A stretch of DNA of 64,000 nt, taken from Pseudomonadota bacterium (GTDB lineage Bacteria; Pseudomonadota; Alphaproteobacteria; Micavibrionales; UBA2020). The notes beneath the pieces were generated by a model. That model had not been told where the DNA came from. It saw nothing but the letters and a program-made list of their open reading frames with translations, and searched no databases. The position numbers and the translations under genes were made by a program. The stretch is from the NCBI GenBank assembly GCA_021845905.1, contig JAJZVA010000001.1, forward strand, positions 1 through 64,000, given 5' to 3'. This document shows, one piece after another, positions 27,305 to 38,248 of this stretch (position 1 is the stretch's first letter; each line of letters begins with the position of its first letter).

Positions 27305-29443
27305 CTATGCCGTCGTTTTTCTGTTTTTCTGCTGCGGCTTCGCGTTCGCGACCTCCATGGGGAGCTCGATGATGAACGTCGTGCCTTTCCCCGGTTCCGA
27401 CTCGACCGTCAGGCTTCCGCCGTGCTTCTTGACGACGATGTCGTAGGAAATCGACAGACCCTGCCCCGTGCCTTTGCCCACTTCCTTGGTGGTGAAGAAC
27501 GGGTTGAATATCTTGCTCATGTTCTCCTTGGGGATGCCGCAACCGGTATCGGATACGGCGATGGTCACTTTCTTTTTGGTCGCCGAGGTGGAGATGATGA
27601 TTTTGTTGTTGTCCGGATCGGGCGTATTTCCCGATTTTTCCTCGATGGCGTGCGTGGCATTGACGATCAGGTTCAGGATCACTTGCGTGAGCTTGCCGGG
27701 TATGCACGGCACGGGCGGCAAATTCTCGTCGAATTTCATCTCGACCTGCGTGTAGGATTTCCACTGGTTGCGGGAGACGATAATGGTGTTTTTCAAAGCC
27801 TCGTTGAGGTCGGTGTAAACGATGTCTTCCGTGGCGGGATAGCTGAACCCGCGGATCGCGCCGACGATTTCTATGATCCGACCGACGCCTTCCAGAGACT
27901 GTTCGAGCGCCTGGGGCGTTTCATCGCTGAAAAATCCGATGTCCTGGTTTTTCGCCGACGCGTCGAGCGTCTGCTGCGCCTCCTGCGGCAGGCTTTCCCT
28001 GACGGAGAGGATATCCTTGTAAAACCCGTCATAAGCCTGAAACGCGTCGTTGAGGAACTTTATGTTGTCGCGGACGTATTGCGTCGGCGTGTTGATCTCA
28101 TGCGCTATGCCGCTTGAAAGGCTGCCGAGCGCCTCCATCTTTTGCGCCTGCACCAGCTGCCGTTCGAGGTCCTTGCGGTAGGCGATGTCGCGGAAGACGT
28201 TGACGAAAACGGGGTGACCGTCCTCGCGCGTGACGCTTGTCACGCCAAGCTCGACGGGAAATTCCGTGCCGTCGGATTTTACGCCGGTCACTTCCTGCAG
28301 GCCGCCGTCGACGTGATTGCTGACCCCGCCGCTGATGAAATCCTGCACTTCCTGCATGTATTGTATGGCGGTGTCGGGCGTCAGGAAGTCGCCGATCTTT
28401 TTCTGACGGATCGTCTGCCTGTCGTAGCCGAAAATGCTGCAGGCGCTTTTGTTGAAGGCGACGATGTCGCCCGCCGCATCTATGGTGATGAGGCCGTCCG
28501 CGACGCTGTTGAAGATGGCGTCCAGCTGCCGGGCCGCGGCGGTGCTTTGCTGTTCGGCTTCCTCGGCGCGGCGGAAACCTTCGTGCACCTGCAGCAAAAG
28601 GCTGTTCAGCGCCATGATCACCTCGCCCACCTCGTCGTCAGCGCCTTCGTGCCGGATGATGTAATTCTCCGTGTGGTGCGGGTCCTGGCTCGCGTCGACC
28701 ATGGTCGAGATGATGTTTTCCATCGGCTTGAAGATGTTGAAAAAGATCACCGCGTTGATCAGCAATATCCCGCCGATGCCGAAAACGAGGAACAGCAAGG
28801 GAAACTTGCGGAAGTGCGCCGATTCCGTGAAAGCCCGCGCGGAGAGATCCGACGACTCCTCGTTGATCTTCGTTGAGATCGCGCGAAGATCATTGTCGAT
28901 CACGGCGATCCTGCTATAGGCTTCGGCCATCACTTTTTGGCCCTGCTGCGGGTTGCCGCTGATATAATCGTTCATCGCCACGCGCGGCAGGTCGCGCATC
29001 ATTTTATAGTTCTTCTCGACCGCCGCGCCTTCTGTCGTGAAATCCTCGAGGTTTTGCAGGTAGTCGCCGAACCTGCTGAGATTGCATCTAACGCCGCGCT
29101 CGGCGCTTTGGTCGGGGAGCTGGACGGGCGTTTTGCGCAGGCCGTTGTCGAGGATGGCGAACCAGAACTTGACGGCGCCGAAGCAGCTGATGGTGTCGGA
29201 CAAGACGGCCTGATTGGCCATGATCCGGCTTTGGCTTTCGATCGACTTGTTGCTGGCCCGGGTCTGGGCGATGATGACCTTGTTGGCGTAGAACAAGCCC
29301 GCGAACATCAGGACGCAGATGCCGAGAAGCTTGGTGCGCGTTTTGAAGACGGTGACCTTTTTAAAGGATGTTTCCCGCCCTTTCAGCGGCTCCGCTGGCG
29401 GATTTTGCGACAACCTGTCGGATAACGGGCCATTGTCCATCAT
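27305..29443 (-). CDS. Membrane PAS-domain sensor histidine kinase
   Basis: 712 residues from the ATG at 29443 (the track ORF starts earlier, at 29506). Order: a transmembrane helix (about 35-52), a periplasmic sensor region (about 55-225), a second helix, a HAMP-like linker, a PAS domain (about 315-430, IFNSVADGLITIDAAGDIVAFN), and a kinase core. The phospho-acceptor His is in SSGIAHEINTP, the N box in LNLIVNATHAIEE, and the G boxes in DTGCGIP and GTGQGLS. AHEINTPTQ is typical of the HisKA subgroup that pairs with stand-alone REC proteins. The REC-HDOD gene follows after 9 nt. Confidence 0.9.
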   Translation of the reverse strand: MMDNGPLSDRLSQNPPAEPLKGRETSFKKVTVFKTRTKLLGICVLMFAGLFYANKVIIAQTRASNKSIESQSRIMANQAVLSDTISCFGAVKFWFAILDNGLRKTPVQLPDQSAERGVRCNLSRFGDYLQNLEDFTTEGAAVEKNYKMMRDLPRVAMNDYISGNPQQGQKVMAEAYSRIAVIDNDLRAISTKINEESSDLSARAFTESAHFRKFPLLFLVFGIGGILLINAVIFFNIFKPMENIISTMVDASQDPHHTENYIIRHEGADDEVGEVIMALNSLLLQVHEGFRRAEEAEQQSTAAARQLDAIFNSVADGLITIDAAGDIVAFNKSACSIFGYDRQTIRQKKIGDFLTPDTAIQYMQEVQDFISGGVSNHVDGGLQEVTGVKSDGTEFPVELGVTSVTREDGHPVFVNVFRDIAYRKDLERQLVQAQKMEALGSLSSGIAHEINTPTQYVRDNIKFLNDAFQAYDGFYKDILSVRESLPQEAQQTLDASAKNQDIGFFSDETPQALEQSLEGVGRIIEIVGAIRGFSYPATEDIVYTDLNEALKNTIIVSRNQWKSYTQVEMKFDENLPPVPCIPGKLTQVILNLIVNATHAIEEKSGNTPDPDNNKIIISTSATKKKVTIAVSDTGCGIPKENMSKIFNPFFTTKEVGKGTGQGLSISYDIVVKKHGGSLTVESEPGKGTTFIIELPMEVANAKPQQKNRKTTA

Positions 29444-36679: not shown

Positions 36680-37084
36680 TTAAAAACCGGGGTTATTTCT
36701 TTTGAATTCCGCGGCGCGTTTTAAGGCGGCGGTGTGTTTGTTTTCCTCGGCCCTGATCATCTCTTCGACGCGCGCGGAAATGTCCTGCCCGGCGAAGCTC
36801 TCAATGATGAAGTCAGCGATGTTCTTTTCCGACGGTTCCTGTCCGCTGGCGCAAGTGACCACTTTGGATTTGCGCGGTTTCTCCGCGTCATAGGCAAGAA
36901 TGGCAATCGCGCCGGCGTCATTCCGGTAGATGGAAAGATCGGGGTTTCCGCCCCGCCACGCAGAGAACGCGAAGCCGGTGTTCACAAAGATATCAAGAAC
37001 CGTGTTGGCAAGGTCGTTTCCGGGTTTGAAACTTGTCAGTTCCGTGCCAGGCTTCAAGGACAAATGGTTAAATGCGTGTTTCAT
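36680..37084 (-). CDS. Hypothetical soluble protein, 134 aa
   Basis: A mixed alpha/beta protein without signal or membrane segment. The central part (TGFAFSAWRGGNPDLSIYRN) looks beta-rich and the C-terminal 40 residues helical and charged. AAGGAAG precedes the ATG. It converges with tdh. No family recognised. Confidence 0.6.
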   Translation of the reverse strand: MKHAFNHLSLKPGTELTSFKPGNDLANTVLDIFVNTGFAFSAWRGGNPDLSIYRNDAGAIAILAYDAEKPRKSKVVTCASGQEPSEKNIADFIIESFAGQDISARVEEMIRAEENKHTAALKRAAEFKRNNPGF

Positions 37085-37212
37085 GTAAAATCTTCCTTTG
37101 TATGATATGGCATGTATATCACGCTGTAAATTTTATGTCAATAAACAACTATTGAAACATAAATGTAAATTATATATTGCGTATTTAGAAATTATATGCG
37201 ATAAATAGAATT

Positions 37213-37498
37213 ATGGAGCCTTGCGCTCCGCCCGCAAACAGACCAGCGAAAGGGGGTCGCGGACAAAAGATTTTCATCGCCTTTCCTCAACATCCATTGC
37301 CTGGGGAGACAGAGCTTTGGAGGTGACGCCGGATCGAAACCGTCGCGGCGGATGATGAGGGGAAAGAATGATTTCAGGCCAAAATCGCCCCGCAGGCCGT
37401 TATGCGGGGCCGGTTATTGAACATCGTGAATAATTTTTTGGGGCGCCCCCGCATCCTGCATAAAAAAACGCCCTCCGTTTCCGGAGAGCGCCTTTTTT
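37213..37498 (+). ncRNA. Candidate structured non-coding RNA, about 285 nt
   Basis: The 37085-37517 gap has no ORF but a transcript-like layout. A promoter-like region (TTGCGT near 37177, ATAAAT/TAGAAT near 37201-37211) is followed by a GGAGC/GCTCC hairpin (37215-37229). A long stem (CTTTCCTCAACATCC at 37281-37295 with GGATGATGAGGGGAAAG at 37350-37366) encloses a CGCCG/CGGCG hairpin. Next comes a 7-bp CCCCGCA/TGCGGGG hairpin (37388-37409), then an intrinsic terminator. The GC content rises sharply from the AT-rich upstream region at the predicted start. It does not show the conserved sequences I know for RNase P RNA, tmRNA or SRP RNA. Could be a 6S-like or novel RNA. Confidence 0.5.
37463..37498. 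terminator. Bidirectional intrinsic terminator
   Basis: AAAAAA-CGCCCTCCG-ttt-CCGGAGAGCG-CC-TTTTTT: an eight-pair stem with one mismatch, flanked by an A-run and a T-run. It can end both the plus-strand RNA candidate and the minus-strand transcript of the glycine-rich gene at 37518-38066. Confidence 0.85.
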
Positions 37499-37517
37499 GA
37501 ATATTCCGCAGTACCGG

Positions 37518-38066
37518 TTATTGCTTCGGCGCACCATGACCGCGCGGCGTCGCCTCATTCTTCATATGCTTGGGCAATACCGATTGCAGCTCAAATGTCG
37601 TCTGGCTCTGTTGAGCTTTCTCAAAAGCGGGCTTCGACGTAACGCTCTTGAAGCTTGTGCCGGACTGTTGTTGCGCCGGAGCGGCAGGAGCGCTCGCGCG
37701 CGATGCTGGTTTAATGCCGATCAGTTTGCCAAGGCCTTTGACGCCCATGCTTGCCAGCTTGACCACGCCGCTGACAGCCGCGCCGATGATGCCTCCGACC
37801 GCCGAGCCGACACCCATGACACCGATACCTGCGTAAACACACAAAGGGCTTGTTATAATGGCCGCGCCAAAACCCAGCACGCCGCCTGTGATGGCGCCCG
37901 CCACGCCGTGTGCTACGCTTGTAATCAGCGTATACGTCGTGATCCCGATCGCGAACGGCGCGGCGATCATAAGACCGATGCCTGCAATGATGGATAACCC
38001 TGCGATGAATCCGCCAACAGCACCGCCTGTGGCTTTGGCTACACTCAACCTCTCATTTAATTTCAT
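37518..38066 (-). CDS. Glycine-rich multi-helix membrane protein, 182 aa
   Basis: The ATG at 38066 (MKLNERLSVAKATGG) is chosen; GAGAGAAG precedes it and the track's earlier start adds an unlikely leader. Residues about 10-125 are almost continuous hydrophobic, glycine/alanine-rich helices with small-xxx-small patterns (GGAVGGFIAGLSIIAGIGLM; VGSAVGGIIGAAVSGVV), the glycine-zipper style of pore- or bilayer-inserting proteins. The C-terminal 55 residues are polar and Q/S/A-rich, probably disordered and cytoplasmic. No family recognised. Confidence 0.6.
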   Translation of the reverse strand: MKLNERLSVAKATGGAVGGFIAGLSIIAGIGLMIAAPFAIGITTYTLITSVAHGVAGAITGGVLGFGAAIITSPLCVYAGIGVMGVGSAVGGIIGAAVSGVVKLASMGVKGLGKLIGIKPASRASAPAAPAQQQSGTSFKSVTSKPAFEKAQQSQTTFELQSVLPKHMKNEATPRGHGAPKQ

Positions 38067-38248
38067 AATTTCTTCTCTCGAATATAAGTCAAATGTTACT
38101 GGAAAGAGATAATGCATGGATAGACCTTTGCCATTTGCCTGTCAATAAGCATCGTCGGGTTGAATTATGTGCAATATGCTATACCTTGAGCCGCTCACCC
38201 TCTTCAGGCAAACTGAAACAATAAAGCATTCATAGAAGGAGATTTCTC

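What the first reader, a model, noticed from the sequence alone, without database searches (positions are those of the whole stretch)
37170..37500. Strong candidate for an unassigned structured RNA
Seen: a 430-bp gap without ORFs has an AT-rich promoter-like start, a GC-rich body with at least four nested or serial stems, including a 15-pair interrupted stem, and an intrinsic terminator that fits no plus-strand gene. I did not see the conserved sequences of RNase P, tmRNA or SRP RNA in it.
Basis: partly seen in the sequence, partly recalled or inferred. Interest (0 to 1): 0.6.

Follow-up and report, generated by a model that had tools for sequence, protein, structure and literature searches.

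The report
Repressor-controlled RNA unit with rRNA antiterminator
The gap holds one copy of a small repeated non-coding gene of a few related bacteria: a promoter with a phage-type repressor binding site, followed by the same short signal that ribosomal RNA genes use to keep RNA polymerase running; I found no description of such a combination.

Summary
The gap is real and holds a conserved non-coding transcription unit, but not the terminated, elaborately structured RNA proposed. Rfam finds nothing. The window copy is one of at least four in its genome; a sister species has more. On the + strand: an extended -10 promoter (37177-37205) overlapping a degenerate palindrome TTGC-N7-GCAA; a body whose inner 81 nt are 94% identical between species (silent sites of two genes: 59-79%); then a hairpin and GGTTATTGAACATCGTGAATA (37387-37432), which is the boxA antitermination signal of the genome's own rRNA operon and of rRNA leaders across the order. 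Three species of another genus carry 19 compact units in which this promoter runs straight into this boxA; several are conserved while their flanks are not. In five species the palindrome also lies about 130 bp upstream of a gene for a lambda-CI-like repressor. The terminator belongs to the minus-strand gene. Fold energy, covariation and codon pattern support neither an elaborate structure nor a peptide. Best reading: a repressor-controlled non-coding RNA carrying an rRNA-type Nus-factor site. Neither transcription nor protein binding has been shown.

The parts
37166..37176 (+). AT-rich stretch just upstream of the -35, shared by the copies of this genus
   Evidence: alignment A2 and the 92% match of the C3 end to 37166-37229
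37177..37205 (+). extended -10 promoter: TTGCGT (37177-37182), 17-nt spacer with TG at 37197-37198, GATAAA (37200-37205)
   Evidence: 22-sequence alignment A5 without internal gaps; coordinates checked
37177..37191 (.). degenerate copy of the palindromic operator TTGC-N7-GCAA (TTGCGTATTTAGAAA here; intact in the C3 copy)
   Evidence: same palindrome 128-139 bp upstream of a CI-like repressor gene in five species
37215..37229 (+). hairpin at the predicted RNA 5' end (GGAGC/GCTCC); kept in the G002 C233 copy as CGGAA/TTCCG
   Evidence: alignment A2; folds of -8.1 and -7.6 kcal/mol, z -2.8 and -2.3
37248..37391 (+). conserved non-coding body of the unit; inner core 37276-37356 is 94% identical to the G002 copy
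37299..37326 (+). invariant 28-mer GCCTGGGGAGACAGAGCTTTGGAGGTGA
   Evidence: 27 of its bases (37300-37326, up to 3 mismatches) found only in G000 and G002 among 142 genomes of the order; a 25-base part in one of 84,980 species genomes and a 23-base part in no viral contig
37387..37410 (+). boxB-like hairpin (GCCCCGCA / TGCGGGGC) ending just before the boxA
   Evidence: z -2.2; similar position, different sequence, in most rRNA leaders examined
37412..37432 (+). rRNA-type boxA GGTTATTGAACATCGTGAATA
   Evidence: same signal in the genome's own rRNA leader and spacer and in rRNA leaders of relatives
37465..37500 (-). intrinsic terminator of the minus-strand gene 37518-38117 (not part of the unit)

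Best explanation
The region is one copy of a dispersed non-coding transcription unit. A sigma-70-type extended -10 promoter overlaps a palindromic operator (TTGC-N7-GCAA), most likely bound by a chromosomal CI-like repressor (HTH_3 plus Peptidase_S24). When the repressor leaves, RNA polymerase makes an RNA that begins near 37211. In this lineage the RNA carries a conserved body of about 170 nt and then a boxB-like hairpin plus an rRNA-type boxA. The boxA should recruit NusB, NusE (S10) and their partners, so that the untranslated transcript escapes Rho and is completed. Shown here: the conserved promoter, the palindrome upstream of the repressor gene, identity of the boxA with the rRNA signal, repetition, and conservation. 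Inferred: binding by the repressor, transcription, Nus recruitment, and any target of the RNA.
For: BoxA identity: TTATTGAACATNGTGAATA (up to 1 mismatch) occurs in 28 of 135 genomes with no hit for the reversed control pattern; of 28 loci inspected, 17 lie 217-445 nt upstream of a 16S gene and 4 in the 16S-23S spacer; rRNA leaders of nine genomes of the family carry GGTTATTGAACATYGT. Promoter: 22 sequences align without internal gaps from -35 to -10 with fixed 17-nt spacing. Units: 19 compact promoter-plus-boxA units (6, 6 and 7 in G008, G015 and G013), E 3e-21 to 2e-9. Between units at shared loci promoter and boxA are 0.67-1.0 and 0.9-1.0 identical, several with upstream flanks near 0.5. Repressor: palindrome at -128 to -139 in 5 of 5 species; CI-like by PHROG (phrog_4), Pfam and PDB (lambda repressor 3bdn, E 4e-5). 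Inner core 94% identical against 59% and 79% at four-fold sites of tdh and pyrG.
Against: No expression data. The window copy of the palindrome has one decayed half, so repression here may be weak. The family's boxA differs from the gammaproteobacterial consensus GYTCTTTAANA at positions 4 and 7 (PMC5725501), though so does its own rRNA boxA. In the compact units the boxA is at the RNA 5' end, in the window copy about 200 nt downstream, so its role may differ. The repressor also occurs in species where no unit was found (G016, G012). The window promoter was in the training set of model R2; model R1, made without it, recovered the C3 copy only at E 0.097 and the window promoter not at all.
Confidence: 0.6

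Rival explanations
1. Nus-factor decoy: the RNAs are boxA carriers that titrate NusB/NusE away from rRNA operons when the repressor is relieved, linking a signal to ribosome synthesis.
For: Multiple dispersed units per genome; the assembled 3' parts in G000 and G002 run towards the 3' end of a convergent gene and so drive no gene; in the compact units the boxA is the first thing transcribed.
Against: Several compact units lie upstream of genes in the sense direction (fabD, an SDR gene, an ankyrin gene), which suits a leader better than a decoy. No abundance data.
Confidence: 0.15
2. Leader or promoter modules: the unit is an upstream promoter whose boxA-modified polymerase reads into neighbouring genes, sense or antisense.
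For: Units roughly 85-150 bp upstream of fabD, SDR and ankyrin genes in G008, G015 and G013; the same promoter without boxA precedes a conserved protein gene in three species.
Against: Some of those genes show promoter-like sequences of their own further down; in G000 and G002 the assembled 3' parts face convergent genes, and the window copy is followed by a terminator.
Confidence: 0.25
3. Mobile repeat: a small non-autonomous insertion element that happens to carry a promoter and boxA.
For: Three identical 3' tails in G000 end at the same TTCGCGTTAAA; contigs break inside the copies; the window locus lacks the element in four relatives.
Against: No clear terminal inverted repeats. In the other genus the units sit at the same loci in two or three species with the functional parts preserved.
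Confidence: 0.15
4. A classical structured RNA (riboswitch, 6S-like, ribozyme) not yet in Rfam.
For: Conserved inner core; hairpins near both ends.
Against: No credible Rfam match even at E up to 10; core fold energy like shuffles; no compensatory changes in the core; body known from only two species.
Confidence: 0.08

Closest known systems
rRNA operon antitermination signal (boxB-boxA, Nus complex)
   Same: Same boxA as this genome's rRNA leader and spacer; hairpin directly upstream.
   Different: Not next to rRNA genes; under another promoter; repeated at several loci.
Lambdoid phage early module (operator-promoter-nut, such as OL-PL-nutL with CI)
   Same: CI-like repressor gene, palindrome overlapping the promoter, boxA (nut) downstream.
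   Different: Chromosomal and dispersed, no N-like or other phage genes beside the window copy, rRNA-type boxA.
BoxA in non-rRNA transcripts: suhB leader (PMC5725501) and CRISPR array leaders (Stringer et al. as cited in PMC7862264)
   Same: BoxA used outside rRNA operons, including ahead of non-coding RNA.
   Different: Those are leaders of one gene or array; here small stand-alone units share a common operator-like palindrome.

Membership tests
rRNA-type boxA/Nus site | sequence equals the boxA of the organism's own rRNA operons | tested here: met
rRNA-type boxA/Nus site | hairpin (boxB-like) just upstream | tested here: met
   window z -2.2; clear in 3 of 4 element copies; most rRNA leaders similar
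rRNA-type boxA/Nus site | gammaproteobacterial consensus GYTCTTTAANA | tested here: not met
   GTTATTGAACA differs at positions 4 and 7; the family's own rRNA boxA differs in the same way (PMC5725501)
rRNA-type boxA/Nus site | binds NusB-NusE and antiterminates | not testable with these tools
   needs biochemistry or reporters
CI/S24 repressor regulon | repressor gene with HTH and Peptidase_S24 in the genome | tested here: met
CI/S24 repressor regulon | same palindrome at the repressor gene and at the unit | tested here: met
   one half is decayed in the window copy
CI/S24 repressor regulon | self-cleavage (Ala-Gly site, Ser-Lys dyad), hence damage induction | tested here: inconclusive
   read by eye: residues appear present in G008, G002 and G016; G000 appears to lack Ala-Gly and Lys
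Lambdoid phage early module | N-type antiterminator or other phage genes beside it | tested here: not met
   neighbours are tdh, a small ORF, an unknown ORF and an aldehyde dehydrogenase gene; no phage DNA match
Rfam families (6S, RNase P, tmRNA, SRP and others) | score above the gathering threshold | tested here: not met
Intrinsically terminated sRNA gene | own terminator | tested here: not met
   the terminator belongs to the minus-strand gene
MITE-like element | terminal inverted repeats | tested here: not met
   window copy only; target duplications were not tested

The most novel reading that the evidence does not exclude
A domesticated lambda-CI-like repressor governs a chromosome-wide set of non-coding RNAs that each carry the cell's own rRNA antitermination signal, so that whatever inactivates the repressor releases RNAs that exploit or compete for the Nus factors used by ribosome synthesis.
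Probability: 0.2. Interest if true: 0.8.

Novelty: new variant of a known kind. Interest (0 to 1): 0.55.

Why it matters
BoxA outside rRNA operons is known mainly from single leaders. The 2017 survey of Nus targets says that it did not consider non-coding RNAs and that the boxA consensus may differ in some species (PMC5725501). Here is a family of stand-alone units in alphaproteobacteria with the family's own boxA variant, tied by a shared palindrome to a CI-like repressor. It makes a direct test possible: whether a repressor can switch on RNAs that draw on the ribosomal antitermination machinery.

Tried and rejected
Rfam at gathering and permissive thresholds: nothing credible. Phage and plasmid BLAST: nothing. 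Conserved pattern in viral contigs: nothing. Coding: substitutions fall evenly over codon positions (6, 6, 7), so no peptide. Structure: the RNAalifold consensus of two sequences scored z -3.3 against shuffled columns, but that comparison is partly circular and the alignment has no compensatory change; single-sequence folds show no depletion of changes in paired columns (P 0.13 and 0.46). Short hits in G010 and in G002 C249 look like coding sequence and were discarded. A dif/Xer-site reading of the AT-rich part was considered (resemblance from memory) and dropped because spacing and copy number do not fit. The fold and PDB-fold tools were not used because the unit is not a protein.

Full report
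1. What is there. The gap between the minus-strand ORF 36680-37084 and the minus-strand ORF 37518-38117 is 433 bp and holds no ORF of 60 aa or more. No Rfam family matches, and permissive hits are chance-like. Fold energy over 37195-37500 is only slightly better than shuffles (z -1.5), and the conserved core equals shuffles (z about +0.3). The intrinsic terminator belongs to the minus-strand gene: on that strand it is an unbroken 13-bp stem, on the plus strand it has a mismatch. A terminator also lies beside the orthologous gene in relatives that lack the element; the order tdh - that gene - aldehyde dehydrogenase gene is shared.

2. It is a repeated element. Searching the window's own genome (G000, 26 contigs) finds a 92% match to 37166-37229 at the end of contig C3, and matches to 37408-37437 at both ends of C6, near the end of C7 and in an rRNA operon. 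Contigs therefore tend to break inside copies of this element; the C6L, C6R and C7 copies share an identical 3' tail ending in TTCGCGTTAAA. A species of the same genus, G002 (contig deposited as JAGXAX010000006.1, an alphaproteobacterial MAG), has three partial copies; one lies beside pyrG, as in G000. No other species of the genus has it at pyrG. The invariant pattern is confined to these two species among 142 genomes of the order, and in the 84,980-species collection only the G002 contig has it.

3. The 3' part is the rRNA boxA. GGTTATTGAACATCGTGAATA (37412-37432) has close copies in the 16S leader and the 16S-23S spacer of G000. Across the order, of 28 loci inspected, 17 lie 217-445 nt upstream of a 16S gene, 4 in the spacer, 3 are compact units and 4 are unassigned; the reversed control pattern never occurs. 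Nine genomes of the family carry GGTTATTGAACATYGT in the rRNA leader. In the window and two other copies a GC-rich hairpin ends just before it, as in most of the rRNA leaders.

4. The 5' part is a specific promoter. G008, G013 and G015 (another genus of the family) carry 19 compact units in which TTGCGT-N17-TAcGgT with an extended TG is followed within about 10-17 nt by the same boxA. The promoters of the window's genus, including the window's own, align to these without internal gaps. Between units at shared loci promoter and boxA are kept, several times with random-level flanks; one pair is 100% identical over both while its flanks are at about 50%. In the window's genus a conserved body of about 170 nt sits between promoter and boxA.

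5. The palindrome and its likely regulator. Promoter and spacer contain TTGC-N7-GCAA. Searches with the unit models also hit the upstream region of one gene in G000, G002, G012 and G016; that gene encodes an HTH_3 plus Peptidase_S24 repressor related to lambda CI. I then fetched 2.38 Mb of G008 (3.2 Mb) and found its homologue, 68% identical to that of G016, again with the palindrome at -138 and an imperfect second one at -41. Five of five species have the palindrome at -128 to -139. That the repressor binds the units is inference from this coincidence.

6. Constraint on the body. The inner core 37276-37356 is 94% identical between the G000 window copy and the G002 C233 copy, against 59% (tdh) and 79% (pyrG) at four-fold degenerate sites of the same species pair. 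Because the copies sit at different loci, recent spread or gene conversion could also contribute. Substitutions show no codon periodicity.

7. Mechanism. Most likely the repressor holds the promoter; when it leaves, an RNA starting near 37211 is made, and the boxB-boxA signal recruits Nus factors so that this untranslated RNA is not ended by Rho. Alternatives are a leader feeding neighbouring genes, a Nus decoy, or a mobile repeat. Transcription, repressor binding, Nus binding and targets are all untested. The window copy of the palindrome has one damaged half, and the G000 repressor appears to have lost self-cleavage residues, so regulation in this very genome may be altered.

8. Novelty. BoxA in non-rRNA transcripts is known (PMC5725501; PMC7862264), and operator-promoter-nut modules are textbook phage biology (own knowledge). 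A chromosomal, dispersed set of non-coding units with the rRNA-type boxA and a shared CI-type palindrome was not found in the paper library, which holds open-licence papers only, so absence there is weak evidence.

Noticed in passing
L135, L136, L137 (G008 C4:353758, G015 C101:5224, G013 C61:16604): The same promoter with palindrome but without boxA precedes a conserved short ORF and a membrane-protein gene that looks like a chemoreceptor, in three species.
   Followed up: partly
L168, L170, L174, L175, L177, L183: Further copies of the palindrome near other genes of G008, G015 and G013, several just upstream of a TTGACA promoter, suggest a wider regulon.
   Followed up: partly
L179:734-1396 (G000 C13): The G000 repressor appears to lack the Ala-Gly site and the catalytic Lys that its homologues retain.
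   Followed up: partly
window 37402-37412 and 37444-37454: The 3' arm of the boxB-like hairpin can instead pair with a stretch after the boxA, enclosing the boxA in a loop; a possible switch.
   Followed up: no
L003:1501-1795 (G000 C7 end): A transposase-like reading frame with an insertion-sequence-like end lies directly beside this copy of the element.
   Followed up: no
L007:540-990 (G002 C233): This copy lies just downstream of a sequence that reads as the RNase P RNA gene (recognised by eye, not tested).
   Followed up: no
window 28472-28574: ARAGORN calls a 103-nt tRNA-Phe that Rfam's tRNA model does not report; probably a false positive.
   Followed up: no
window 36680-37084: Small ORF with a weak, sub-threshold DUF2992 match; no match to it was found at this locus in the relatives examined.
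   Followed up: partly
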